DNA from: Myxococcales bacterium
GTDB taxonomy: Bacteria > Myxococcota_A > Polyangia > Polyangiales > Polyangiaceae
Assembly (NCBI GenBank): GCA_016191785.1
Contig: JACPVJ010000144.1
Span: 1 to 64,000, forward strand
Direction of reading: 5' to 3'
Length of the DNA stretch: 64,000 nt
In this document: positions 21,130-58,295 of the stretch, piece by piece
Layout of the letters: each line of letters begins with the position of its first letter
How positions within the stretch are numbered: position 1 is the stretch's first letter
The notes under the pieces: model-generated
Told to the model about the DNA's origin: nothing
What the model saw: only the letters and a program-made list of their open reading frames with translations
Database searches by the model: none
Translations under genes and position numbers: made by a program

Positions 21130-22728
21130 CTAGGCCTGGGGCGGCGGCTGCCCCTCCGGTGCGGCCACGTCGAGCCAACCGAAGAACTCCGCCATCTTGG
21201 AGCGCTGGCGGGGGGGCATGTACTCGAAGTTCCGGCCGCGATCGATGATCTCCCAGAAGTCCTTGGTGGTCACGCGCTCGAGCTCGGTCCGGATCGCGAG
21301 CAGGCGATCGGCCGGCTCGCTGGCCATGTCGTCGGCGATCGTGCGCGCCTTCTGGTCGTCGCCGTGCATCAGGTAGTAGGCGGCCAGCTTCACCTGCGCC
21401 TTGCGCACACCGCGCAGCCCTCGCTCTTGGCTGCGGACCGCCAGCGGTCGATCGAGCTCGAGGAACAAGCCCACCATGTCTTGCTCGATGGGCGACTCGA
21501 GCTCGTGCGCGTACTGGCAGAGCGTGGACACGTCGTAGGCAATCGTCTCGGTGACGAAGGTGAGCTTCATGTCGAAGCTCACGTGACCGTAGTACTGCAT
21601 GTGCTTGACGCCTTCGAGGGCGGCCTTCACGTGCCCCAGTCGCAGCATCGACTCGACCAGCAGGCGGTACTGGTTCAACACGTTGTACGCCGTGCGGACG
21701 TCGCGCGCGTTGAGCGTCGCTCTCAGGTACGAGTTCATGTAGCGAAAGACCAACTTGACGAGCTCGTCGTCCTTCGCCGCGGCCGCGCCTTCCCCGACGT
21801 AGCGCGTGTCGATGGCGATGAGGTAGCAGATGTCGCGCATCGCCCCCAGCGCCTCGTTGTAGATCCCGAGGTACTGCCGCATGACCTTCCACTCGACCCA
21901 GGTCCGGCGCTGCTCGAGATCGTGCAGACTCTCGGGATCCATCGCCACGAAGTCCGGGTTGGCTCGGATCGAGTTGCCGACGTTGAACCAGATGTCGCTC
22001 GCCGCACCCTTGGTCTTCAGGTAGTCGAGCGTGAAGTCCTTGAGCGCGTCGACCGCCCCGCTGGCGATGATCTTGTCCTTCCCCGAGATGGAGTTGCTGG
22101 TGATGTCGGTCAGCTCTTCCATCGAGCCCAGGGTGCGCGCCTGGGCCTCGGCGCTCGCGGCGCCGTCGACCAGCGAGGCCCCGCGGTGTGCCACGCTGAC
22201 GGCCTCGCGCCGGATGCGAGCGATGATGTTGTTCGGCTCGAGGAACCAGAACACGTACCCGAAATACGGCGCCATCAGCACCAAGCCGCCGGTGGTGGCC
22301 AGCATCATCGCCACGAGCGTGATCCGGGGCACGTACCCCTGCTGCAATGCCACCGAGAGCCAGACGCCGCAGACGCAACAGATCACGTAGTAAGCGGCGA
22401 CCGTGACGTTGACCCGGTCGCGCAAGAACATGCGGGCGACGCCCGTGTAGCGCTCGGCCGAGAGCTGCACGACGATGCTGACGACGGTGATGACGATGCC
22501 GAACACCGCGGCCGTCATGCCGGCCAGGGAGCTGACCGCATCCGTGATGTGCTCGGCATCGAAGCTGAGGTAGCGATCGACGGGGCCACCGCCCTGGCGC
22601 GGCGCCCGGAAGAAATCGATGCTGTAGAACACCCAGAACAGCGCGAGCGCCGACGACGCCAGGAGGGTGATCGGGATCAACCACTGGCGCCGAAAGCTGG
22701 GCGTGCTGGCGTCGTCGCGGGGCGGCAT
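21130..22728 (-). CDS. DUF2254 membrane protein
   Basis: 532 residues. About four membrane helices are visible in the first 185 residues, including LIPITLLASSALALFWVFY, AAVFGIVITVVSIVVQL, VTVAAYYVICCVCGVWL and LVLMAPYFGYVFWFL. A soluble C-terminal region follows (from about 190) with DGAASAEAQ, YLKTKGAASDIWFNVGNSI and IAIDTRYVGEG, then helical repeats. This matches the DUF2254 family of predicted inner-membrane proteins of unknown function. The gene is monocistronic between two hairpins. Alternative starts further upstream are not supported. Confidence 0.8.
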   Translation of the reverse strand: MPPRDDASTPSFRRQWLIPITLLASSALALFWVFYSIDFFRAPRQGGGPVDRYLSFDAEHITDAVSSLAGMTAAVFGIVITVVSIVVQLSAERYTGVARMFLRDRVNVTVAAYYVICCVCGVWLSVALQQGYVPRITLVAMMLATTGGLVLMAPYFGYVFWFLEPNNIIARIRREAVSVAHRGASLVDGAASAEAQARTLGSMEELTDITSNSISGKDKIIASGAVDALKDFTLDYLKTKGAASDIWFNVGNSIRANPDFVAMDPESLHDLEQRRTWVEWKVMRQYLGIYNEALGAMRDICYLIAIDTRYVGEGAAAAKDDELVKLVFRYMNSYLRATLNARDVRTAYNVLNQYRLLVESMLRLGHVKAALEGVKHMQYYGHVSFDMKLTFVTETIAYDVSTLCQYAHELESPIEQDMVGLFLELDRPLAVRSQERGLRGVRKAQVKLAAYYLMHGDDQKARTIADDMASEPADRLLAIRTELERVTTKDFWEIIDRGRNFEYMPPRQRSKMAEFFGWLDVAAPEGQPPPQA

Positions 22729-22822: not shown

Positions 22823-24352
22823 TCACAGGCCGCCGAGCGGCTTGTCGAACTGGAAGAGCGGCTCGCCCTCGGTGACCAGGGCGTGACCGGGCACGTTCAC
22901 CAGTGACATCAGCGAGCTGTCGCTCGAGATCTGGCCGGACACCAAGGACCGATCGAACGGGGCGATCGGCGACAGCGTGTTCGGGTTCACGGCGAGCTTG
23001 CCGGTGATCGACAGATGCATGTGGTGGTGGTGGAACTGGTACCACCCCATACCGGTGTTGGTGGTCTCGAACGCCAGCTTGGACTTCACCGCCGTGCAGG
23101 ACTTCTGCGGTAGCCAGCCGGTGGAGCAGAGCGCCGGCATCGCGCTCTCGACCAGCGGCCCGACCTGGCCGTCGACGCCGATCACCCGGACGAGCTCACT
23201 CGACATCATCGCGCCGAGGTAGAGCGTGGTGCGCCACAGGTCGAGCTTGTCGGGCGCCGAAACGCAGTGGTACTGGTCCTTGCCGCCAGACGTGTGCTCG
23301 CAGACGGGGCGGAGCTTGTTGTCGGGCGTGCCGGCCTGGAAGTACGCCATGTCGATGTCGTGACCGTTGACGTGCGTCCCGGCGGGGTGGCCGGGCTGAC
23401 CGACCGAGGTCCCGGGGATCGCGCCGTTGGACTCGCTCATGTCACCCAGGCCGATGAGCCCACCGTTCCCGGTGGTCCAGCTCTTTGCCTTGCAGTCGAC
23501 GTAGGCGGCCGCGTACTTCACGAGCATCTGCGTGTCTCGACGCAGGTAGCTCCGGTACTGGTTCGACGAAGTCTCGCCGTTGATCGGGTAGTCCTCGTAA
23601 CCCGGACCGAGATCGGGCTCAAACGGCAAGAGCTCGCTGCAATAGGCCAGCGTGCCGGTGCAATCGCGCTGCGGAAGCTTGCCGGTGCAGTCGGGGCCGG
23701 GGCCGGGGCCGGGGCCATTGCCGTCTGGAACGCACTTGCCCGAAGGCGTGTCGCACTTCAGCCCGGACGGGCAGCTGCCGGCGGTGCAGGGCTTGGGCTC
23801 GCAATTCAACGTCTTCGGATTGCAGACCTCGGTCGATTCGCACTCCGAGTTGTCCTTGCAACCAGGCACGCAGGCGCCGGCCGAGGGCTCGCACGCATAC
23901 GCGCTCGCGCACTGGCTGGTGTCGGTGCACGTCTGGAGGCAGAAGGTCTTGCCGCTGGTCATCTTGAAGCAATCGCTTCCATTCGGGCACGAGCCGGGTT
24001 GGCAGTTGGCGATCGCGCAGTAGCCGTTCGGCCAGCCCTGGTCGGCGGTGATGCACACCGCGCCCGCTCCCGTGCAGTCGCCGTCCTTCGCACACGGCGC
24101 ACCGATGTTCCCCTGGGTCGGGCCTCCGCCCGCGCCGCCACCGCCGCCCGTCGCCCCCGCGCCGGCCGCGCCGCCGACGTTGCCGCCGCCGACACCGCCG
24201 CCCATACCGCCGAAGTTGCCGCCACCGCCGCCCACCGCGCCGCTGCCGCCCGTGGCCTGGTTGCCTCCGCCGCCCCCACCCGAGGAACAGGCCGCGACGA
24301 CGGCCGTGATGAAGACCGCTGATACACCGAGAGAGATCTTGTTTTTCTTCAT
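22823..24352 (-). CDS. LAS-type metallopeptidase lipoprotein with Cys-rich linker
   Basis: 509 residues. The signal peptide ends in a lipobox (ITAVVAAC), then a Gly-rich linker to about residue 70, then a Cys-rich part (about 70-230) with repeating C.xG.C.NGS / GACVPGC patterns. The C-terminal part looks like the M15/M74 (LAS) zinc peptidase fold: a His/Asp pair in THVNGHDIDMAYFQ and a His-rich QFHHHHMHLSITG for the third zinc ligand. Such enzymes cut peptidoglycan cross-links (murein endopeptidase MepA type) or related amide bonds. ATG 24352 (MKKNKISLG) is preceded by GGTGGGCGCC; an in-frame ATG upstream lacks a ribosome site. I cannot tell whether catalytic activity is preserved. Confidence 0.7.
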   Translation of the reverse strand: MKKNKISLGVSAVFITAVVAACSSGGGGGGNQATGGSGAVGGGGGNFGGMGGGVGGGNVGGAAGAGATGGGGGAGGGPTQGNIGAPCAKDGDCTGAGAVCITADQGWPNGYCAIANCQPGSCPNGSDCFKMTSGKTFCLQTCTDTSQCASAYACEPSAGACVPGCKDNSECESTEVCNPKTLNCEPKPCTAGSCPSGLKCDTPSGKCVPDGNGPGPGPGPDCTGKLPQRDCTGTLAYCSELLPFEPDLGPGYEDYPINGETSSNQYRSYLRRDTQMLVKYAAAYVDCKAKSWTTGNGGLIGLGDMSESNGAIPGTSVGQPGHPAGTHVNGHDIDMAYFQAGTPDNKLRPVCEHTSGGKDQYHCVSAPDKLDLWRTTLYLGAMMSSELVRVIGVDGQVGPLVESAMPALCSTGWLPQKSCTAVKSKLAFETTNTGMGWYQFHHHHMHLSITGKLAVNPNTLSPIAPFDRSLVSGQISSDSSLMSLVNVPGHALVTEGEPLFQFDKPLGGL

Positions 24353-24518
24353 GGCGCCCACCATGTGGTCAATGGGGCGAGCGAATGACACAATGTGGGC
24401 AGGGCTGCAAGCGCGTGTGCGGGGCATCGGCTCAAGTCGCGGGACTCGCGCGCAAATGCCCGGGGTTGGCGGCGCGTGCGGCCATCCGAGTCGTAGGCCG
24501 CGCGCGCGAGGCGGCGCG

Positions 24519-25016
24519 TCAGACCAGCGGCTCGAAGTCCCGATCGAGCACGGTCTTGCGGCCGTCACGTGCCGCGTTGCGGATCGCTTCGTTGCACAGC
24601 TTGCGCAAGTGCTCCGAGAGCACACCGGTCACCGAATCCGAGGTGTTCATTCCGGACCGCGCCCGAACGTACGCCTTGACCTTGGACACGACCACCAGCA
24701 CTTCCTTCGGCAGGTCGTCGCCCTCGCCGCTGCTGACGATCCGCCGGCGGGGAACCTCGTCCAGCTCTGCCGGAGCGTCGCCCTCGCGTTCCTCCGCTTC
24801 GCGCAGCTTCTGCCACTCGGCGGCGGTCGGAGCCTTGCGTTCTTCCGCCCACGCGTCACGGTGCCTGGCCTCCGGCACGTGAGCGTCCCAGCACGGCACC
24901 GAGCAGAAATAGAGCCCCGTGCGCTTGCGGTTGCAGGTCGAGACGCTGCACACCCAGTACTTCTGCTCGTAGTCGAGGGGGCGTTTGCAGGTCGAGCAGA
25001 TCTTCCACTGTGCCAT
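24519..25016 (-). CDS. Zinc-finger plus histone-fold protein
   Basis: 165 residues. Residues 1-55 contain ordered Cys/His ligands: C7-C10, C23-C28, C38-C42, then H46 and H52, a treble-clef-like zinc module. Residues 60-100 are a charged linker. Residues 103-165 match a histone fold: helix 1 about 103-121, helix 2 about 126-150 (SVTGVLSEHLRKLCNEAIRN), loop with GRKTV and a short helix 3 (DRDFEPL). The histone signature R-x-T-x4-D is present as R153, T155, D160. This is much more like archaeal histones and the histone-fold proteins reported from bacteria than like HU or H-NS. It probably binds DNA, with the zinc module in protein contact or targeting. It lies 17 bases after the DUF4388 gene in one operon with a Ser/Thr kinase. 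Whether it forms nucleosome-like particles is unknown. Confidence 0.72.
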   Translation of the reverse strand: MAQWKICSTCKRPLDYEQKYWVCSVSTCNRKRTGLYFCSVPCWDAHVPEARHRDAWAEERKAPTAAEWQKLREAEEREGDAPAELDEVPRRRIVSSGEGDDLPKEVLVVVSKVKAYVRARSGMNTSDSVTGVLSEHLRKLCNEAIRNAARDGRKTVLDRDFEPLV

Positions 25017-25033
25017 GTGACGAGCTCCGGGGA

Positions 25034-28000
25034 TCAGGTTTTCTTGGGTCCACGCGTCGAGCTCCGCGCGGGCCTCGACGTGGCGCGCGGCGCCGCTTCG
25101 ATGGGTGCGATGCAGCGGGTGACCATCAGCAAGTAGACCACACGACGGATGACGTCGGGGTCGTGACCGGCCTCGACCAACTCGGGAAGAGATGCTTGGG
25201 TCATCCCGATGGCGTCGGCCACCGTCGCCTCCGCCACGTCGAGCTCGAACGCTTCGAGATCGGACTCGGGGTGAAGGTGCAGGGCGTTCCCGGCCAGCCG
25301 GGTCAGCACGCGGTCCATCTGGGCCTCTTCGGGGTGCGCTCGCAGCCCGAGGGTGAGCGTCGCGAGTGGCGACGCCATTCCGGGGATGTTCCCCCAGATC
25401 GCTTCCAGCAGGTCGAGCCCGTTGTAAAACGAGTATTTCGTCCCCTGGGGCAGGCCGAACAGGTAGATCAGGCGCTCTTCCAGCTGCTGGTTGCGAACCT
25501 CCGCGATCTGGTCGGCAGTGACCAAGCCGAACTCGATCAGCTCGGTCTCGAGGGTGGCCTCGTGGCTGGGCGGCTGCGAGATGGGCTCGCCCTCGAGCTG
25601 AGATTGCTCGAGCAAGCCGTGCGCAACCAGCGTGGCGCCAAGCGGTGCCACCTTGCGCCCGGTGTGGAGCTTGGTGGGAATGCCCTCCTGGAAATACCCA
25701 GCGTGCTCCACCGGGGAGTCTTCTTTGCGCTCGACGGGCTCGGTGAAGATCAGCGTGCCGCTGAGCGAACGATCCAAGAGGTAGAGCAAGATGTGGGAAA
25801 ACGGGGTTCGCTCGAAGGAGCCGCTGGCGCTCGGGGCGTGGATCTGATCGATGCCGCCACCGGCCTCGCGCTCGTTGGGCGGGAGCGTCTTGGGCGCGCG
25901 ACGCCACTGGATCGACGGAGCCGACGGCTCGACCTCGGAGATCTCGAGGGGGTCTTGCGCGTCTTCTCCGGGCGCCGGGTTGCCTTGAGGCGGCGCGACC
26001 GCGGCAGAGGTGCGTCGAACCACCGACGGGCCGCTGGCCGGTGGCGGCGGCGCTCGCAACGCCCCGCTCTTGCTGGGCGTGTCGTCGATGCCCGGAGGCG
26101 CGACGGACTTGCGCGGCGGGCCGACCGACGGCGGAGCGCCCGCCGCGCGCCGCAGCACGGCAGACGGCGACGACGACGACGACGGCATCGAGGGTGTCGA
26201 CGGTGTCGACGGGTACGACTGTGACGTCAGCTCGACGCTCCGCATCTCGGCGCTCTTGTGCTCGGCGCTGCGCAGGTCGGACGAGTCGTGGATCACGGTG
26301 GCGTCTTCCGAGCTCGGCAAGCGCAGCGCGCGCGGCGGCGCCACCGGCATCACCCCGGGGCTGACCGGTCGACCCGCCCGGGCCGGAGCGGCGCGCACCG
26401 GTTCGGGAGGCGCAGCGACCGGCGGCGGCGCCTCCGCCGGCGGCGCCGCGGGAAGCTCTTGAACCGAGTCCGGCTCGAGCTCTTCGAGCACTTCCGTGAC
26501 GGACTCGGGCGCGAGCGCGATGGGTTCGGGCTCTGCTTCCGGCGCGAGCGCGATGGGTTCGGGCTCCGCCTCGGGCTCCGGTGCGAGATCGCCGAACACG
26601 TCGGGCAGCTCGGGCTCCCAGGGCAGCGCGGTCCGGTCCACCTCCTGCGGCTCGGGCGGTGCGCTCGGGATCACATCGACGGCAACACCGCTCGCGGCCG
26701 CGGGTGGCACGGTCGGCACCGCGTTCAGCGCTTCGTCGTAGCTGTCGGGTGGCTCGGAAGGCGGGCGCTGGGGGGCGGGCGCCGGCGCCGGCGTTGCCGC
26801 CAGCACCTTGGCTTGGGCCTCCGCCAGCGCGGCGTCGGCGTCGATCACGCCCACGACCTGGCGCGCAGGGTCGTTCACCAGATCGAGGGCGACCCGCGCT
26901 TTGAGCAGCTGCCCCGCCGCGTCGTACACCAATCGGACGGTGGGGTTCACGTAGTCCGCGGGTTCGGCCGGCGTCTTGGTCACCACCCCCCGCTCGCCGG
27001 TGTTGAGCTGCACGGCAGTGCCCCGCGGGAAGATTCCGAGCGCGCCCACCAAGAGGGCGAGCATCGCGCGCTCGGTCGCGTCCTTCGCCTCGGCGCGCAT
27101 GCGCTCGATGGCCTCGTCCGGCGTCGGCGTGGTGCTCGCGGCCAAGTCGGGCTCGAGCAACTCGTTGAAGCGGTTCGCCGTCGCGACGATGCGCGGAGCC
27201 ACCATCGCTCGCCGCGCGCCGCCGTACAGCGGGCCGAAGCGGTCCGCCTGACGCATCCAGTGGGATTCGTAGCCGATCACCGTGCGGATCATCGACGCCG
27301 GCCGCAGCTGCCCGAGGGCCGTCAGCACCAGCGCGGTAGCGGCGGGCAGTCGCTGCTCGGCGTCCTCCGTCATTCGCATCACCACCACGTCGTTGCCGCG
27401 GCCGACGATCCCCGTGACCAGGGGGTGCGCCACGTCGAAGAACAGCGCGCTCATGGCGATGCGCGCCAGCACTCCGAGGTCGGTGGTGAGCTGACGCGCC
27501 ATCGTCACCGCCAGAATGCTGCGGTTCACCGCGCGCCCAGCGGCGTCGTGGTTCAAGTTTCGCATGGCGGTGATGCCGAGGAACGCAGGAGCGTCGCCCT
27601 CGGAGAGCATCACCAGGCGCTGGGCCAGGCGTTTGGCGTGGTGCGGCAGCTGATAGCGCCCGTTGGTCAGATTCTCGAAGATGCGGCGCATGACCACCAC
27701 GCTGGTGGCGTAGGTCCGCACGACCTGCTCTTCGATGCTCAGGTCTTCTTCGTCGTCCATCCGCGCCGGCGGCACGTAACGCAGGCGAATGCGTGGCGAC
27801 GGCTCGATGACGCCGTTCTCGGCGCGGGCGTCCTTCTGCTGGAACAGGCGAGCCAGCGAGGTCAGATCGGAGCGGTTGGCGTCGGTCTCGATCATCACCT
27901 CCGACACGCCCAACCGGCGGATCATCGTCCCGAGCTCGAGCGCGTTTTCGTACTCGCCACGGGACGCCTTGAGCAAGTGCCCCGCCACGAACACGGTGTT

Positions 28001-28255
28001 CTTCGCGAAGAGCAGCGTCAGGGCCTCGCCGGTCGCGGCGCCGAAGCCGCGGAGCGCCTCGACCGTCTGGTCGATTTGCTGCAGCACCGCCATGTTGTCG
28101 ATGGCGTGCAGCTGCACGATCTTGAGCAGGCGAAAGATCTGCAGCGCCAGCGCGGCGCCCAGCTCGCGTTGCTGGTGCGCCTGGGCCAGCTCGGCAACGT
28201 TCCTGAGATACGCGTTCTGCTGACCGTCGTCCGCGTTCTGGAGCTCGATGCTCAT
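25034..28255 (-). CDS. Large DUF4388 protein with HD-like N-terminal region
   Basis: 1073 residues. ATG 28255 overlaps the upstream kinase stop by four bases (ATGA). Residues 1-450 are helical, with a stretch LFFDVAHPLV near 275 and SHWMRQADRFGPLYGG near 335 reminiscent of HD/HD-GYP-type proteins. The canonical HD and GYP residues are not all evident. Residues about 470-820 are a low-complexity region very rich in Pro, Glu, Ala and Ser. The C-terminal 280 residues begin with a DUF4388 domain (SFERTPFSHILLYLLDRSLSGTLIFTE), a fold typical of myxobacterial and deltaproteobacterial signalling and gliding proteins. It is placed between the kinase and the histone-fold gene and so may be a phosphorylation target or adaptor. 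Role unknown. Confidence 0.75.
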   Translation of the reverse strand: MSIELQNADDGQQNAYLRNVAELAQAHQQRELGAALALQIFRLLKIVQLHAIDNMAVLQQIDQTVEALRGFGAATGEALTLLFAKNTVFVAGHLLKASRGEYENALELGTMIRRLGVSEVMIETDANRSDLTSLARLFQQKDARAENGVIEPSPRIRLRYVPPARMDDEEDLSIEEQVVRTYATSVVVMRRIFENLTNGRYQLPHHAKRLAQRLVMLSEGDAPAFLGITAMRNLNHDAAGRAVNRSILAVTMARQLTTDLGVLARIAMSALFFDVAHPLVTGIVGRGNDVVVMRMTEDAEQRLPAATALVLTALGQLRPASMIRTVIGYESHWMRQADRFGPLYGGARRAMVAPRIVATANRFNELLEPDLAASTTPTPDEAIERMRAEAKDATERAMLALLVGALGIFPRGTAVQLNTGERGVVTKTPAEPADYVNPTVRLVYDAAGQLLKARVALDLVNDPARQVVGVIDADAALAEAQAKVLAATPAPAPAPQRPPSEPPDSYDEALNAVPTVPPAAASGVAVDVIPSAPPEPQEVDRTALPWEPELPDVFGDLAPEPEAEPEPIALAPEAEPEPIALAPESVTEVLEELEPDSVQELPAAPPAEAPPPVAAPPEPVRAAPARAGRPVSPGVMPVAPPRALRLPSSEDATVIHDSSDLRSAEHKSAEMRSVELTSQSYPSTPSTPSMPSSSSSPSAVLRRAAGAPPSVGPPRKSVAPPGIDDTPSKSGALRAPPPPASGPSVVRRTSAAVAPPQGNPAPGEDAQDPLEISEVEPSAPSIQWRRAPKTLPPNEREAGGGIDQIHAPSASGSFERTPFSHILLYLLDRSLSGTLIFTEPVERKEDSPVEHAGYFQEGIPTKLHTGRKVAPLGATLVAHGLLEQSQLEGEPISQPPSHEATLETELIEFGLVTADQIAEVRNQQLEERLIYLFGLPQGTKYSFYNGLDLLEAIWGNIPGMASPLATLTLGLRAHPEEAQMDRVLTRLAGNALHLHPESDLEAFELDVAEATVADAIGMTQASLPELVEAGHDPDVIRRVVYLLMVTRCIAPIEAAPRATSRPARSSTRGPKKT

Positions 28256-30993
28256 CGCCCCCTCAGTCGCGCCCGGAGCTGCGTGGCGGCCTGGAGCGCG
28301 CCGTTCTTCACCGCGGCCGAGTTGCCCCACTTGCCGGCCGCTTGGTCGAACACGTCCAGAACGTCCTTCGAGGTGGAGACGCGCGCGAGGAAGGTCATGG
28401 CCAAGATGCGCGTGTCGTCAACGTCCTCGCGCGTGAACATTCCGGCCTTCGACACCAGATCTTTCAAGACCGCCTCGCCGCGACCGGGCGACAGCTCGAA
28501 CAAGGTCTCGAAGAACAGCTGGCGCTCGTCGACGGCCAGCTTGTGGAAGGCCTGACTCTGGATGTGGAGCGCGAGCGGCGGACCGGCCTCTTTGACCTTG
28601 TAACGAACCAGCGTGCGAAGCGCCGCCATCCGCACCGCCTGATCGGGGTCGGTCATCAACTTGCCGAGCTCGTCGCGCAGGCCATCCATGTTGGCCGCGG
28701 CCCGCATGGCGACGGCTTCGACGCGGATCTCGGCGTGCGGGCTGGACTCGGCCTTGCGCAGCGCGACCGATGCGGCCTCGGTCTTCAGGCGGCCGAGCAG
28801 CGCCAAGATCACCTTGCCGCGGGCCAAGTCGGGATCGTCGAGCAGCTCCGCGATGCGGTCTTCGTGACCCGGCGCGTTCCGCTCCAGGTAGCGAAGGAGT
28901 GCGTTGCGGATGTCCTCGATGTCGGCGCGTGCCATCGCCCCGAGCACCGTGTCGAAGGCTTCGACGCCCACGTCCTCGAGCAGCACGGCCAGGTACGGGG
29001 CAGTGCGCGCGATCTTCGGCCACTCGCTCTCGGGGAGCTTTCGCGTGAGCTCTTTCAGCACCAGGGCCATGGTCTCGGTGTCGAACACGCTCCGGACCAG
29101 CTCGCGACGAATCTCGACGCCCCCGCGCACCGTGACGCTCTCGGCCACGGCCACCACCATGCGAAGCGCGAACTCCAGCGTCTGGCTCGCTGCGTTTTCG
29201 TGCAGGGCTCCGCTCAGGGGCACGGCCGCCAGCGGCAGGTTCCCGAAGGTCACCGCGTCGTTGGCCGCGTCGGCCAAGACGTCGACGAAGCGGGCTTCCC
29301 ACTCGTGCTCTGGCATGTCCATCGCGGCGGAAATCGCCGCCCGCGAGCGGTCGTCGAGCGAGAGCGCGTGGGAGGCGCGCACGGCGCGCAGCGCGACCTG
29401 CCGCGCAGCGATCGCGGCGGCTTTCTCTTCCAGATCCATGCCCTCGTCACCGTCGGCACCCTCACCGCGGCGCCGGTTCATCTCGGCCAAGATGCGGTGA
29501 CCTTCCTCGAGCAGCCGTTCGTACTGCCGAGCCGCTTCGTCAGAGGCGTTCAGCGCGAGAAACGACATGACGACGACGTAGCGGATGTGGTCGAAGCCGC
29601 GCTCCCAGAACGCGGTCGCCATGTCGTCTTCGGGCGAGAAATCCCGATACGGGTCCTTGCGGATCAGCTCGAGCCAGGCCCGAAGCTCGTCGGCGGTCAA
29701 CCCCGGCAGGAAGCTGAACCGCCGGAACCCGCTGGCGAACAGGTTGTAAGGGATCTCGTCGAACGGATGGAGGGGCTCCCACAGCACCACCCCACGCTTG
29801 GTGAACGAGTGTGGCTTCACGTCGAACACGAAGTCCTCGGGGTGCCGGTGGGTCACCTGCGAGAGCACCTCGGCCGTGGACGCGATCTGCTGGGTCGTGA
29901 CGGGGTGCTCCCAGGTGTACTGGCGCACGGCGGTCAGCGCGCGCTCGATGTGACGAAAAGCCTCTTGCAGCTCGGTGACCAGCTGCTGCTCTTCGACGGT
30001 GAGCGGCTCTTCCCTGCCCGCCGCTTCTTCTTCTTGCTCGGCGAGGGCGGCCAGCTGGTTGGCGACGGCAGCCTTCTTCTCTGGCTCGGGTTCGACCACC
30101 CCGGCTGCGCCCTGCACCACGGAGAGGACCCGGGCGATCTCGTCCCGCATCTCCTGGGCACTCTGGAAGCGGTTGCGGGGGTCCCACTGCAGCGCGCGGT
30201 CCACCAGCGCCACGACGTCGGGTGGGAGGTCCGACTTGGCCCGTGCGACGCTGGGCGCCGGCCTCGTCGCAGCGAGCACGAAGGCCTCTTGGTGTGAACG
30301 CCCCTCGTGCAGGCGCTTGCCGCTCAGCATCGCGTGGAGCACGGCACCGATCGAGAACAGGTCGGTTCGCGCGTCGATCCGGTCGTTCGAGCCGAGCGCC
30401 TGCTCGGGGGCCATGTACGCGGGGGTGCCGAGCGCAGTGCCCGCCAACGTCGGGTCGACGCCCGCCTCGCGGAGCCGAGCCACGCCGAAGTCGAGCACTT
30501 TGACGTAGCCCGAGTCCGTGACGAAGATGTTCGCGGGCTTGAGGTCGCGGTGAACGATGTTCATGCCGTGACAGACCGCGAGGAAGTCCAGTACGCGATC
30601 GATGATCTCGAGCGCGTACTCGACGGGCAGCGCGCGGTTGTGCCGCTTCCAGAGCTTGTCGAGGGTGACGCCCTCGAGCAGCTCCATCACGAAGTACGGG
30701 TCGCCTTCGTCGCTCTGACCCTCGTCGTAGATCTCGACGCGACCCGAGTGGTCGACGGCCTGGGTGAGCTTGGCCTCGCGGATGAAGCGCTGACGAACGC
30801 CGTCGTTCGTCGAAAACTCGCTGTGGAGCACCTTGATGGCGACGGCCGTCCCGGCTTCGTCGTGGCTCAGGTAGACGGCCGCCATGCCGCCGAGCCCGAT
30901 CAACTTCTCGATCGGCCACTTGCCCGCAACGACTTGCCCGATGCGCTGCTTGGCGAGGCTCAGCTCGTCCTGAACTGGCTGCTCTGCGGCCAT
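28252..30993 (-). CDS. Ser/Thr protein kinase with long HEAT-like C-terminal region
   Basis: 913 residues. N-terminal Hanks-type kinase (about 20-290): GLGGMAAVY glycine loop, VAIKVL (catalytic Lys), HRDLKPANI, LDFGVARL and GTPAYMAPEQ. All catalytic residues are present. There is no membrane helix. After a charged linker (about 300-360), residues about 370-560 form an unknown helical domain, and the last 340 residues look like HEAT-type repeats (PHAEIRVEAVAMRAAANM, DPDQAVRMAALRTLVRY). First gene of an operon with the DUF4388 gene (ATGA overlap) and the histone-fold gene. It should phosphorylate cytoplasmic partners; the obvious candidates are its operon mates. Confidence 0.88.
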   Translation of the reverse strand: MAAEQPVQDELSLAKQRIGQVVAGKWPIEKLIGLGGMAAVYLSHDEAGTAVAIKVLHSEFSTNDGVRQRFIREAKLTQAVDHSGRVEIYDEGQSDEGDPYFVMELLEGVTLDKLWKRHNRALPVEYALEIIDRVLDFLAVCHGMNIVHRDLKPANIFVTDSGYVKVLDFGVARLREAGVDPTLAGTALGTPAYMAPEQALGSNDRIDARTDLFSIGAVLHAMLSGKRLHEGRSHQEAFVLAATRPAPSVARAKSDLPPDVVALVDRALQWDPRNRFQSAQEMRDEIARVLSVVQGAAGVVEPEPEKKAAVANQLAALAEQEEEAAGREEPLTVEEQQLVTELQEAFRHIERALTAVRQYTWEHPVTTQQIASTAEVLSQVTHRHPEDFVFDVKPHSFTKRGVVLWEPLHPFDEIPYNLFASGFRRFSFLPGLTADELRAWLELIRKDPYRDFSPEDDMATAFWERGFDHIRYVVVMSFLALNASDEAARQYERLLEEGHRILAEMNRRRGEGADGDEGMDLEEKAAAIAARQVALRAVRASHALSLDDRSRAAISAAMDMPEHEWEARFVDVLADAANDAVTFGNLPLAAVPLSGALHENAASQTLEFALRMVVAVAESVTVRGGVEIRRELVRSVFDTETMALVLKELTRKLPESEWPKIARTAPYLAVLLEDVGVEAFDTVLGAMARADIEDIRNALLRYLERNAPGHEDRIAELLDDPDLARGKVILALLGRLKTEAASVALRKAESSPHAEIRVEAVAMRAAANMDGLRDELGKLMTDPDQAVRMAALRTLVRYKVKEAGPPLALHIQSQAFHKLAVDERQLFFETLFELSPGRGEAVLKDLVSKAGMFTREDVDDTRILAMTFLARVSTSKDVLDVFDQAAGKWGNSAAVKNGALQAATQLRARLRGR

Positions 30994-31098: not shown

Positions 31099-32883
31099 TC
31101 AGCGGCGGGGGCGCCGCGACCGGCCGGCTCGGCGGAAGGGCAGCGCAATTGCGGCAAAAAGCAGGAACAACGCGCTGATCCGCAGGCGCCGGGGTCGCCT
31201 GGGGACCGAGCAGTCCCCGCCGCTCGACCCCGACCCCGAGCTGCAGCTCTCGCCGCCGCCGCTGTCCCCCCCGGAGCAAGTGTCGCCCTCCGCCCCCGCA
31301 GAAGAGTCCCCGCTGCACGTGTCCCCGTCGCCGTTCGAGGTGGAGTCGCCTCCGCACGTGTCGCCCTCGTCCCCCGCGCCCGTCGAGTCGCCCCCGCAAG
31401 TGTCCCCGTCGTCCGAGCTCGAGTCGCCGCTGCAGCTGTCGCCGTCGCCCGAGCCCGTGCCGCCCCCGCTGCCGCACGACTCGACGATCTGGACTCCGCA
31501 GTCGACGTCGACGGCGGGGTCCGCAGGCTCGGGATCGTAGTACCCGGTGCTGGCGCCGTAGCCGCCGTAGCCGCCATCACCCCCGTAGCCCGCGCCACCC
31601 GTGGTGCCCCCCGAGGCACCGCCGTTCCCGCTCGAGCAGCCGCTCGTGTTCTGCGAGTCCGCCGTCACCAGGACCGAAACCGCGGGGCCGTCCCCCACGC
31701 CGAAGGAAGCAACGACCGGAGACTTTACCCCCGCGACGGTGACGTGGCGCGTGATCCGCACCTGGTCGGCGCGCATGCCCGCGAGAGCGAACGCGATGTC
31801 GTCCGCCCCGCCGCAGGCGAGGGCCATCGCCGCGATCTCGCCCGGGCCCGGCTGGTCGTTGCACGCGGAAGCCCCGGGCGCATCGGGCACCGTGACCAAC
31901 GCGCCCGCGGCGCACGCCCGCGACAGGCGCGCGCCGGTTTTGCCCGCAGCGATCGCATCCCAAATCGGAGCCACACAGAAGTCGGCGCTGGAGACCCCGA
32001 CCGTCTCCTTCTTGGCCTTCTCGAAATAGGTCTTCACGCCGGGCGACAGCGCCCCGGCACCCGAGGGCAAGACCGTCCAGCCGAAGAGCGGCGTCGAACC
32101 GCTGGCCTCGATCACTGCGAGCCCGCCCTGCTTGGCGAGGAGCGCGGTGCGCCGATCCGCCAGGTAGCTGCTGGTGCCGCTCAGCACTTGCCACTCGATG
32201 CCCAGATCGCCGGCAGCCGTCTCGATCAGACCCGCGGGCACGCTCGCGCGCCCCTCGGCGACGGTGAACACCGTCACGTCGGGCGCGGCGTCGGTCGCCA
32301 GGAGCCCGACGCCGAGCGCCGCGGTCGAGGGCTGCTGGACGCGCAACGGCTTCGAGAAACCCGCGTCTTGGGTCAGGTCGTAGACGACGGCGACGAAGCG
32401 CGCACCACCCGCCTGGCTCAGCAGCGCGGTGTCTTCGGCACCGAACGCGACGCCTTGCTGGATGGCGAACGAGCTCAGTTGCGCGATGTCGTCGAGGACC
32501 GCGACGCTGCTCGGGTCGAGCCCGCTCTGGGGGGCGAGGCTGGTGTTCTCGAGGGACCCCTCGTGGGTGGCGCCGCACGCCAGCACGGGCTTGGGCGGCC
32601 GGATGCGCGGCGCGGTGACGCCGTCGATGGCAGCGAAGAACGCATCGAGAGACGGGTCCACGCGCGTGCCCGCGGCGACCGGCAGAACCATCACGACGCG
32701 CCCCGGCCCGCCCTCGAGGCCCAGCGAGAGCCACTGGGTGCTCCCCGTGGGCGGCTCTGCGCGCACCACGCGCGCGGAGCTGACGAACACCGTCGAATCC
32801 TGGGCGGTGAGGACTCGGCCCGCCGCCACGGCCGGGCCAGGGGCCGAGAGCAAAGCCAGCGCGAGCAAGACCCGACGGAGCAT
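31099..32883 (-). CDS. DUF2330-like secreted protein with Cys/Asp/Ser repeat and MYXO-CTERM-like tail
   Basis: 594 residues. The signal peptide (MLRRVLLALALLSAPGPAVAA) is followed by a globular region (about 30-420). A phrase there, GRVVMVLPVAAGTRVDPSLDAFF...VTAPRI, resembles DUF2330 proteins. Residues about 425-555 are low complexity, with repeated GDTCGGDST-type units. The end, CSVPRRPRRLRI then a hydrophobic segment (SALFLLFAAIALPF) then RRAGRSRRPRR, has the Cys-membrane-Arg order of a MYXO-CTERM-type surface sorting signal, though it is not a perfect match. Start 32883 is chosen for the signal peptide; a longer open frame upstream has none. Confidence 0.7.
   Translation of the reverse strand: MLRRVLLALALLSAPGPAVAAGRVLTAQDSTVFVSSARVVRAEPPTGSTQWLSLGLEGGPGRVVMVLPVAAGTRVDPSLDAFFAAIDGVTAPRIRPPKPVLACGATHEGSLENTSLAPQSGLDPSSVAVLDDIAQLSSFAIQQGVAFGAEDTALLSQAGGARFVAVVYDLTQDAGFSKPLRVQQPSTAALGVGLLATDAAPDVTVFTVAEGRASVPAGLIETAAGDLGIEWQVLSGTSSYLADRRTALLAKQGGLAVIEASGSTPLFGWTVLPSGAGALSPGVKTYFEKAKKETVGVSSADFCVAPIWDAIAAGKTGARLSRACAAGALVTVPDAPGASACNDQPGPGEIAAMALACGGADDIAFALAGMRADQVRITRHVTVAGVKSPVVASFGVGDGPAVSVLVTADSQNTSGCSSGNGGASGGTTGGAGYGGDGGYGGYGASTGYYDPEPADPAVDVDCGVQIVESCGSGGGTGSGDGDSCSGDSSSDDGDTCGGDSTGAGDEGDTCGGDSTSNGDGDTCSGDSSAGAEGDTCSGGDSGGGESCSSGSGSSGGDCSVPRRPRRLRISALFLLFAAIALPFRRAGRSRRPRR
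31220..31470. repeat. Cys-Asp-Ser-Gly coding low-complexity repeats
   Basis: Imperfect units of about 27-45 bases encode the repeated D-x-C-x-G-D-S pattern in the linker of the DUF2330-like protein. Each unit contains one Cys, spaced about 10-18 residues apart. Confidence 0.55.
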
Positions 32884-32996
32884 CCGACCCGGCCCTGCAG
32901 CAACGACCGTGCCCGAGTGGATTTCCCGGGCGACCTGCTCCGGCGACGCCGCAGGCGTGAACGCCGGTTCGGAGTCCGGGCTGTGCCGATGCTGCG

Positions 32997-33689
32997 TCAC
33001 TTGGGCGCGCACGAGGCGTATCCGGGCGGAAGGGCCGAGTCGGGCACGCATGCCGTGCCCGAGGCGCAGGGCTTGCCGCCGGGGTGGCACACCTCGCGGC
33101 GCGTCGCGCCGACGCGGTCGCTGACGCACGTGGAGCGGCACTCGACCACGTCCCAGGTCGGGCTGATCAGGCCCTTTTCGGCGCAACAGATCTTGCCCGT
33201 CGGGCAGTCTTCCGGACCGTCGCACGCGATCTCGGTCTTGTCGCAACCGATGCCGCTGCACTTGCAGGGGTTCGCGAGCTTCTCGTTCGAGCAGAAGAGC
33301 GGGACGTTCTCGCCCTTGCAACACGTGTCGCCCGCACTGAACGCGCACGTCGAGCCGCCGCACGGGCCGGTTCCGACCCCCACCGGCGCGCCCCCCGTCC
33401 CGCCCACCGACCCGCCGCCCCCGGTCGGTGACCCGCCGAGGCCGCCGGTGCCGCCTGCGCCGCCAGAGGACGTGCCGCCGCTTCCACCCAGACCCCCGCT
33501 CGATGTGCCGCCCGACGCGACGCTCCCGGTGCCTCCAGACGCCGAGCCGCTGCTGCCCCCCACGGTCGTCCCCGCGACGCCGGCGCCGCCGCCGGTCCCC
33601 TGTCCGTAGAGGCCTTTTTCCTCCGAACCGCCGCAGGCGAACAGCACGAGGCCCGTCGCCCAGACCGCCCTCGGACCCATCGCCGCCAT
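32997..33689 (-). CDS. Gly/Ser-rich Cys-containing lipoprotein
   Basis: 230 residues. Lipobox at GLVLFAC. Residues about 25-110 form a Gly/Ser/Thr linker. The rest has about 17 cysteines in a repeating pattern (CAFSAGDTCCKGE, CKCSGIGCDKTEIACDGPEDC, KICCAEKG, CVSDRVGATRREVCHPG), suggestive of a disulphide-rich secreted module (similar to Dickkopf/EB-type plaques in myxobacterial proteins). Unknown function. MGPRAVW, three codons downstream, is an equally possible start. Confidence 0.6.
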   Translation of the reverse strand: MAAMGPRAVWATGLVLFACGGSEEKGLYGQGTGGGAGVAGTTVGGSSGSASGGTGSVASGGTSSGGLGGSGGTSSGGAGGTGGLGGSPTGGGGSVGGTGGAPVGVGTGPCGGSTCAFSAGDTCCKGENVPLFCSNEKLANPCKCSGIGCDKTEIACDGPEDCPTGKICCAEKGLISPTWDVVECRSTCVSDRVGATRREVCHPGGKPCASGTACVPDSALPPGYASCAPK

Positions 33690-54581: not shown

Positions 54582-55846
<1,265 letters not shown>

Positions 55847-55943
55847 GACTGCGTCGTCGCCTACGCTCGGCACGCCGAAAGGGCAAGGAAAAAGCCCGCG
55901 GGTCAGTCGCCCGAATCCGCGCTACGCTCGGTCGCCGCTGGCC

Positions 55944-58295
55944 ATGAGCCAAGACGAACCGCGCGACCTCGACTCCACCATGGGCATGACGCCCTGGTCG
56001 ACGCCATCCGCGTCCGGCGAGCACGTGATCTTGAGCGGGCGCTACGAGATCCGCGGGCTGCTCGGCTCGGGCGGCATGGGCAGCGTGTACCGCGCGTTCG
56101 ATCGGGAGCTCGAAGAGCTGGTCGCGCTCAAGACGCTGCGCTCGGACGCCGTGTCTTCGCCGCGCACGCTCGAGCGTTTTCGTCGCGAGGTGAAGCTGGC
56201 ACGGCGGGTCACGCACCCCAACGTCGCCCGAACCTTCGACATCGGCGAGGACGGCAGCGAGAAGTTTCTCACGATGGAGTACGTGGAGGGCGAGTCCCTG
56301 GCGGCGCTGCTCGCCCGCGAGGGGCGACTGCCGCCCGCGCGAGCCACCAGCATCGCCCTCGCGGTGTGCGCGGGGCTCGCTGCAGCCCACGGCGCCGGCG
56401 TCGTGCACCGGGACCTGAAGCCAGAGAACGTACTGATCGAGACGTCGGGGCGGGTGGTGATCACCGACTTCGGCATCGCTTGCGCGCGGGTCGATGCAGC
56501 CGACAGCCGCGCCACTGCTGGCGCGGTGGTGGGCACGCCCGCCTACATGGCCCCCGAGCAGGTCGAGGCGCAGCCGGACATCGACGCCCGCGCCGACATC
56601 TACGCTCTCGGGATCTTGCTCTACGAAATGCTCACCGGCGCGATGCCGTTCACGGGAACCTCGCCCTATGCCATCGCTTCCGCGCGGCTCACGCTGGACG
56701 CGCCGGATCCGCGTCACGTTCGCGCTGACCTGCCCGACGCCCTCTGCCGCGTGGTGATGCGGTGCATGGCGCGGCACCGCCACGAACGCTATGCCAAGGT
56801 CGAGCTGGTCTCGGCAGACCTCAGCGCCGGCGCCCCCACGCAGTACGACGAGCTGCACGTCTCGCGTCCCTCGGGGGCGTGGCGGCCCCCGAACCCCGCG
56901 GCCGCCACGAGGCCCGGCGACAAGACCGTGGCGGTGCTGCCGTTCCGAAACGCCGGACCGCCCGAGGACGAGTACCTGGCCGACGGCCTGACCGAAGATC
57001 TGATCGACACCCTCAGCATGTCGCCGGGGCTCAAGGTGCGCCCGCGATCCAGCGTGCTCGGCCTGGTCGGCAAGGACCCACGCGAGGTCGGCGGCGCCCT
57101 CGGCGTACAGGTGGTGGTCGACGGCTCGGTGCGGCGCGCGGGCGGCGCGCTCCGGATCTCGACGCGGCTGATCGGTGTTTCCGACGGTTTTCAGCTCTGG
57201 GCGAAGCGCTTCGATCGTCCCGCAGCCGACGCGCTGGTGATCAGCGACGAGGCGGCCCACGCCATCGCCGCGGCGCTCGGCGTGGACCCCGCCGCGCGAC
57301 TACGCGAAGCGCCCAGCGACGCCAGCGCCGTGGACCTCTACCTGCGCGGCAAGCACGAGCTGCGGCGGATCTGGCGCGAGCCGGTACGGCGCGCGGTCGA
57401 GCTGTTCGAGCAGGCGCATCGCCGGGCGCCCGGGGACGCGACCCTGCTCGGCGCGTACGCCCGGGCCCGGGCACGGCTCTGGTACTACGACGGCGGCGCG
57501 GCCGAAGCGCGCGAGGCGCGTGAGCTGGCCGAACGCGCGCTGACCCTGGCGCCGGACCGAGGCGAGAGCTGGCTCGCGCTGGCCTCGGTCCGGTGGGTCG
57601 AGCAAGACGTCGCCGCCGCGGCGCAGCTCTTGGCGCAAGCGCTCCGTCGCTCGCCGCAGCTGGCGGAAGCCCACGAGCTGTGGGCCGAGGTCGCCCTCGA
57701 GGCCCACGACCCCGCCGAGGCGCTGGCGCGCTACCGCGTCGCGCTGGCGCTCGATCCCGATCTGCGCTGTCGCTATCACATGGCGCGGCTCCACGCTTAC
57801 GCCGGGCGCTGGGGCGAGGTCGACGCGCTCGAGAGCGTTCCCGCCGAAGACGAGCAGACCCGGACGTTGCAGGTCGCGTCCCGCGTGAGGCTCGCGCTCT
57901 GGAGCCCCGACGCCAAGCAGCGCATCGGGGACATCACCCCGCCCGAGTCGGCCGAGGACTTGCTTCCTGTGCAGTACGCACGGGCAGGCCTCTCGGTGAT
58001 CGCCACGGGCACCGTGTCGAGCGAGGTCCGCGCGTTCATGGACGCTCAGTTCGCTCAGCGCGACCAAGCGCCGCGCCTCGCGACGTTCAAGCACATGCTG
58101 GCCACCGAGTTGAACGCCTTCGTGGGCGACCCGCCGGCCGCGCTGCGCCAGCTCGAGTCGGCGGTGAGCGCGGGGCTCACGGACCAGAACTGGGTCGAGC
58201 GCTGCCCGGTCCTCGGACCCTTGGCCAAGCGGGCCGAATTCGAGCGCCTTTCGGCCGTGGTCCGCGAACGGGCCGAGCGAGTGCGCGCTGCCTGA
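55944..58295 (+). CDS. Ser/Thr protein kinase with TolB-like and TPR C-terminal region
   Basis: 783 residues. Kinase domain about 35-290: GSGGMGSVYRAFD, VALKTL, HRDLKPENV, TDFGIA and GTPAYMAPEQ; all residues intact. After it, about 325-450 is the TolB-like / FlgO-type domain (KTVAVLPFRNAGPPEDEYLADGLTEDL, VVVDGSVRRAGGALRISTRL). From about 460 there are TPR-like repeats (AVELFEQAHRRAPGDATLLGAYARARARL, ELAERALTLAPDRGESWLALASV). No membrane helix. It is divergent from murA with 97 bases between. Common architecture in actinomycete and myxobacterial signalling kinases. Confidence 0.88.
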   Translation: MSQDEPRDLDSTMGMTPWSTPSASGEHVILSGRYEIRGLLGSGGMGSVYRAFDRELEELVALKTLRSDAVSSPRTLERFRREVKLARRVTHPNVARTFDIGEDGSEKFLTMEYVEGESLAALLAREGRLPPARATSIALAVCAGLAAAHGAGVVHRDLKPENVLIETSGRVVITDFGIACARVDAADSRATAGAVVGTPAYMAPEQVEAQPDIDARADIYALGILLYEMLTGAMPFTGTSPYAIASARLTLDAPDPRHVRADLPDALCRVVMRCMARHRHERYAKVELVSADLSAGAPTQYDELHVSRPSGAWRPPNPAAATRPGDKTVAVLPFRNAGPPEDEYLADGLTEDLIDTLSMSPGLKVRPRSSVLGLVGKDPREVGGALGVQVVVDGSVRRAGGALRISTRLIGVSDGFQLWAKRFDRPAADALVISDEAAHAIAAALGVDPAARLREAPSDASAVDLYLRGKHELRRIWREPVRRAVELFEQAHRRAPGDATLLGAYARARARLWYYDGGAAEAREARELAERALTLAPDRGESWLALASVRWVEQDVAAAAQLLAQALRRSPQLAEAHELWAEVALEAHDPAEALARYRVALALDPDLRCRYHMARLHAYAGRWGEVDALESVPAEDEQTRTLQVASRVRLALWSPDAKQRIGDITPPESAEDLLPVQYARAGLSVIATGTVSSEVRAFMDAQFAQRDQAPRLATFKHMLATELNAFVGDPPAALRQLESAVSAGLTDQNWVERCPVLGPLAKRAEFERLSAVVRERAERVRAA

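What the first reader, a model, noticed from the sequence alone, without database searches (positions are those of the whole stretch)
24519..30993. Operon linking a Ser/Thr kinase, a DUF4388 signalling protein and a histone-fold protein
The three genes are co-directional; the first two overlap by four bases and the third follows by 17. This suggests a pathway in which kinase signalling alters a chromatin-like protein, something not commonly reported in bacteria. The DUF4388 protein has a long Pro/Glu-rich stretch that could be a phosphorylation platform.
Basis: inference. Interest (0 to 1): 0.7.

Follow-up and report, generated by a model that had tools for sequence, protein, structure and literature searches.

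The report
Kinase/pseudo-HD-GYP pair beside ZZ histone
Three adjacent myxobacterial genes (a signalling kinase, a dead-enzyme scaffold protein and a small zinc-finger histone) really do form a tight operon, but the first two are an old partnership found mostly without the histone, the histone is a known type found mostly without them, and the link holds only in two related genera whose whole chromosome region is collinear.

Summary
On the minus strand a Ser/Thr kinase (30993-28252), a DUF4388 protein (28255-25034) and a histone-fold protein (25016-24519) are packed with an ATGA overlap and a 17-nt gap. The histone belongs to a published family, the ZZ histones (Schwab 2024). The DUF4388 protein is better described as a degenerate HD-GYP protein (fold Z 21 to Bd1817; active-site motifs lost) with a disordered linker and a weak DUF4388/PATAN domain. 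Kinase and pseudo-HD-GYP are the real conserved unit: linked in 37 of 41 genomes that hold the kinase's C-terminal half, with an NTGA overlap at 16 of 20 loci read. The histone is attached in only 5 genomes (two genera), although 137 of 377 Myxococcota genomes have a ZZ histone. Most of the window is collinear with the second genus, so the shared gene order is no specific evidence. A histone-less duplicate of the pair sits inside the histone-bearing clade. Kinase control of the histone is possible but unsupported; a faint excess of kinases beside ZZ genes elsewhere is not significant after collapsing relatives.

The parts
28252..30993 (-). Ser/Thr protein kinase, N-terminal Hanks-type domain (residues ~18-290) with intact catalytic motifs, C-terminal conserved region with HEAT repeats
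   Evidence: Pfam Pkinase E 3.9e-41, HEAT_2 2.4e-6; VAIK, HRDLKPANIF, DFG, APE motifs present; C-terminal half found in 41 of 377 Myxococcota genomes
28252..28255 (-). ATGA stop/start overlap between kinase and DUF4388 gene
   Evidence: sequence; NTGA overlap at 16 of 20 homologous loci
25034..28255 (-). pseudo-HD-GYP / DUF4388 protein, 1073 aa
   Evidence: predicted residues 165-407 have the HD-GYP fold (3tmb Z 21.2); DUF4388-like 811-948; linker ~491-805 disordered
25017..25033 (-). 17-nt gap with Shine-Dalgarno-like GGAG before the histone ATG
   Evidence: sequence
24519..25016 (-). ZZ histone, 165 aa: N-terminal ZZ-type zinc finger (C7, C10, C23, C28, C38, C42, H46, H52), acidic linker, C-terminal histone fold (~104-165)
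   Evidence: alignment A1 with invariant Cys/His; HBb profile match E 4.9e-17; predicted structure and fold match
31099..33363 (-). ORF upstream of the kinase; syntenic in all five genomes, no Pfam family
22823..24364 (-). Cys-rich protein with lipoprotein-like N-terminus downstream of the histone (probable ATG 24364, 154 nt after the histone stop); syntenic in the same genomes
21130..22728 (-). DUF2254 predicted membrane protein; syntenic in the same genomes
   Evidence: Pfam DUF2254 E 2.5e-9

Best explanation
The locus is a composite. Its core is an old, translationally coupled signalling pair: a Hanks-type Ser/Thr kinase with a HEAT-repeat C-terminus and a probably catalytically dead HD-GYP protein that ends in a DUF4388/PATAN-like domain. 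The two are probably made together and bind each other, the second acting as receptor, scaffold or output adaptor (inferred). In the ancestor of two related genera a free-standing ZZ histone gene came to lie directly behind the pair, so the histone is now probably co-transcribed with it (inferred from spacing and strand). The histone most likely keeps the job it has where it stands alone, a small DNA-binding dimer with a zinc-finger interaction module, and is a co-expressed neighbour, not an essential part of the kinase pathway. Shown: gene order, domain content, predicted fold, distribution, synteny. Inferred: complex formation, co-transcription, DNA binding, independence of function.
For: Pair: kinase C-terminal half in 41 and HD part in 93 of 377 Myxococcota genomes; by their coordinates adjacent in 37 of the 41; NTGA overlap at 16 of 20 loci; variable genes downstream. 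Histone: ZZ in 137 of 377 genomes; behind the pair in only 5 (G000, G001, G002, G022, G272). In the family, 28 of 108 genomes have ZZ, 59 the HD part, 12 both, 5 linked; unlinked in the closest outgroups G413 and G008. A duplicate pair without histone (G000:C108) branches inside the histone-bearing clade, support 95/92. Most window genes from 10.4 to 63.6 kb are collinear with G022:C3 171-235 kb. HD fold Z 21.2; HD dyad lost, F273-D274.
Against: The histone stayed 9-45 nt behind the pair across proteins diverged to about 60% identity, which selection for co-expression would explain. Kinase genes lie immediately beside ZZ genes at 5 of 112 other loci, all within 700 bp: p 0.004 taken naively, 0.07 after collapsing related loci to three events.
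Confidence: 0.72

Rival explanations
1. One reading: the kinase, with the pseudo-HD-GYP protein as scaffold, phosphorylates the ZZ histone and so changes its DNA binding and gene expression.
For: Tight three-gene operon in five genomes. Precedent for kinase control of a bacterial chromatin protein: PknB phosphorylates Lsr2. Five of 112 other ZZ loci have a kinase as near neighbour. Catalytic motifs intact.
Against: Pair and histone occur apart in most genomes; general synteny explains the shared order; histone-less paralogous pair kept; kinase enrichment not significant after collapsing relatives; the neighbouring kinases are alike mostly in the kinase domain only.
Confidence: 0.13
2. Expression coupling only: the histone was captured for its transcription timing or dosage (for example a developmental promoter shared with the kinase pair), is needed under the same conditions, but is not a substrate.
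For: Same strand, 9-45 nt gaps kept in five genomes with a Shine-Dalgarno-like site in the window; no terminator-like or promoter-like site on the minus strand between the genes.
Against: No expression data; GC-rich myxobacterial promoters are not covered by the scan; the neutral reading fits as well.
Confidence: 0.15

Closest known systems
ZZ histones (alpha3 histones; Schwab et al. 2024, PMC11390915; D0LYE7 of Haliangium ochraceum)
   Same: N-terminal zinc finger with C4 and C2H2 ligands at the published spacing (one printed residue differs), C-terminal bacterial-dimer-like histone fold, RxTxxxxD motif
   Different: Sits in a multi-gene operon; alpha3 histones are described as generally single-gene
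HBb histone of Bdellovibrio bacteriovorus (8cmp, 9f0e)
   Same: Histone fold, about 40% identity over the domain
   Different: HBb chains in the PDB are 66 residues or shorter and hold the histone domain only, no zinc finger
HD-GYP proteins (Bd1817, 3tmb)
   Same: Predicted fold of residues 165-407, Z 21.2, rmsd 3.1 over 220 residues
   Different: HD dyad and GYP motif absent; fused to a long disordered linker and a DUF4388-like domain; paired with a kinase gene
PknB-Lsr2 of Mycobacterium tuberculosis (PMC6906086)
   Different: Lsr2 is H-NS-like, not a histone; the interaction there is demonstrated, here it is not

Membership tests
ZZ histone | two zinc sites, C4 and C2H2, in an N-terminal ZZ domain | tested here: met
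   C7, C10, C23, C28, C38, C42, H46, H52 invariant in 21 homologues; constant offset of 13 from the D0LYE7 ligands quoted except one residue (printed C53, C55 expected). Zinc binding itself not tested
ZZ histone | bacterial-dimer-like C-terminal histone fold with RxTxxxxD | tested here: met
   HBb profile hit E 4.9e-17; fold Z 7.4, rmsd 1.8 over 59 residues; RKTVLDRD with R153, T155, D160 invariant
ZZ histone | zinc and DNA binding | not testable with these tools
   needs purified protein
HD-GYP | HD-GYP fold | tested here: met
   3tmb Z 21.2; Foldseek E 6e-4 for 3tm8, on a predicted model
HD-GYP | HD metal-binding dyad and GYP motif | tested here: not met
   F273-D274 where HD is expected, no GYP in the alignment; HD kept in some homologues such as L137, L139. 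Judged from the sequence alignment, not from a superposed metal site
DUF4388 / PATAN | Pfam PF14332 above its curated cut-off | tested here: inconclusive
   18.3 bits against 25 for the window protein; 10 of 20 homologues match, best E 2.6e-6
Hanks-type Ser/Thr kinase | Pkinase domain with catalytic Lys, HRD and DFG motifs | tested here: met
   E 3.9e-41; motifs at 51, 148, 168, 189
kinase-histone signalling pathway | histone phosphorylated by the operon kinase | not testable with these tools
   no biochemical or phosphoproteomic data
kinase-histone signalling pathway | linkage kept beyond general synteny | tested here: not met
   5 linked genomes, all in two genera that are collinear here

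The most novel reading that the evidence does not exclude
A dedicated Ser/Thr kinase with a dead HD-GYP partner controls a zinc-finger histone by phosphorylation, which would be kinase control of a true histone-fold protein in bacteria, with ZZ histones more generally wired to neighbouring kinases.
Probability: 0.1. Interest if true: 0.7.

Novelty: new member of a known kind. Interest (0 to 1): 0.27.

Why it matters
It gives a controlled reading of an attractive operon. The conserved unit is the kinase/pseudo-HD-GYP pair, which I did not find described in the paper library and which some myxobacteria carry in several copies. The histone linkage is lineage-specific and should not be cited as evidence of kinase-controlled bacterial chromatin without biochemistry. 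If the histone were a substrate, one purified kinase and one 165-residue protein would test it.

Tried and rejected
Gene-order conservation as proof of a pathway: rejected, because most of the window is collinear with G022. ZZ-histone neighbours elsewhere as guilt by association: mostly unrelated (short-chain dehydrogenase, enoyl-CoA hydratase, thiolase, DUF188, three HDOD). Kinase enrichment beside ZZ genes: 5 of 112 loci, not significant after collapsing relatives. A c-di-GMP-binding (MshE-type) motif in the DUF4388 region: E 0.0067, 16 bits against a cut-off of 38, not pursued. PADLOC hits of the kinase (PD-T4-6 and others) reflect the generic kinase domain; no defence system inferred. No PF00808 histone above cut-off in the six genomes searched; that model also barely sees the ZZ histone, so other histones are not excluded. 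The C-terminal part of the DUF4388 protein has no solved relative by sequence. A literature search for a kinase/HEAT/HD-GYP module in myxobacteria returned nothing.

Full report
Observation. The three genes are present as described, on the minus strand. The kinase stop and the next start share ATGA at 28252-28255, and 17 nt separate the second stop from the histone ATG. The kinase carries all catalytic motifs and C-terminal HEAT repeats.

The histone. The 165-residue protein is a ZZ histone as defined by Schwab et al. 2024 (PMC11390915). Its eight zinc ligands are invariant in 21 homologues. The C-terminal domain matches the solved Bdellovibrio histone HBb by profile (E 4.9e-17) and by predicted fold (Z 7.4, rmsd 1.8 over 59 residues). 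The same paper says that alpha3 histones are generally encoded as single-gene operons and that the ZZ histone of B. bacteriovorus is little expressed.

The middle protein. AlphaFold with 20 homologues gives confident N- and C-terminal domains and a disordered linker of about 300 residues. Residues 165-407 have the HD-GYP fold, closest to Bd1817 (Z 21.2, rmsd 3.1, 220 residues; next family members at Z 13). In the alignment the HD dyad reads F273-D274 and no GYP motif is seen; some homologues keep HD. The C-terminal domain is DUF4388-like, below the Pfam cut-off here but matched in 10 of 20 homologues. Kinase C-terminal half and HD-protein N-terminus show a weak profile similarity (P 3.5e-4, probability 37%), a lead only.

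The conserved unit. In 377 Myxococcota genomes the HD part is found in 93 and the kinase C-terminal half in 41. Comparing the coordinates of the two lists by eye, the two are adjacent in 37 of the 41 (the exceptions are G079 and G298 on different contigs, and G154 and G190 without an HD match). At 20 loci read in full, 16 have an NTGA overlap. Genes downstream differ from locus to locus. The window genome has three such pairs (C126, C108, C50).

The histone link. ZZ histones occur in 137 of the 377 genomes, but follow the pair in only five: three of the window's genus and two of another genus in the family, with gaps of 9 to 45 nt. In the family-wide search of 108 genomes, 28 have ZZ, 59 the HD part, 12 both and 5 linked. 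In the closest outgroups with both, G413 and G008, they are apart. On the kinase tree the histone-less paralogue C108 falls inside the histone-bearing clade (95/92), so the pair was duplicated without the histone or the copy has lost it, and it persists.

The synteny control. Most predicted window genes between 10.4 and 63.6 kb have their best match in G022:C3 in one inverted, collinear run from 235 to 171 kb, with scattered genes lacking a match. The shared order of the three genes in the two genera is therefore expected from general synteny. Neighbours with no evident connection (a DUF2254 membrane protein, a Cys-rich protein, an unassigned ORF) are equally conserved.

Among 112 other ZZ loci, five have a kinase within 700 bp. 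Two are orthologous kinases in one genus and two others are similar to each other, leaving about three events; the excess is then not significant (p about 0.07, and the 700-bp limit was chosen after seeing the data).

Conclusion. Real operon-like cluster, known histone family, conserved kinase/pseudo-HD-GYP pair, lineage-specific combination. The kinase-to-chromatin pathway is a testable guess. Precedent for such control exists with the unrelated Lsr2 (PMC6906086).

Noticed in passing
L134, L135 and 18 other loci: A kinase with HEAT C-terminus and a degenerate HD-GYP protein form a translationally coupled pair across several Myxococcota families, sometimes in several copies per genome; I found no description of it.
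   Followed up: partly
L036, L155, L156, L208, L212: Ser/Thr kinase genes lie within 700 bp of the ZZ histone at these loci, in different orientations; the excess is not significant after collapsing relatives.
   Followed up: partly
window:25034-28255 (minus strand), residues 871-924: Weak match to a c-di-GMP-binding MshE-type motif (E 0.0067) inside the DUF4388-like region, below cut-off.
   Followed up: no
L154:7097-8131, L157:8275-9255, L185:8292-9443: Genes of one HDOD cluster lie one or two genes from the ZZ histone in three genomes; chance not excluded.
   Followed up: no
window:35459-37588 and 55689-58295: Two further Ser/Thr kinase genes lie in the window; the first seems by eye to carry a cyclic-nucleotide-binding-like region after the kinase domain.
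   Followed up: no
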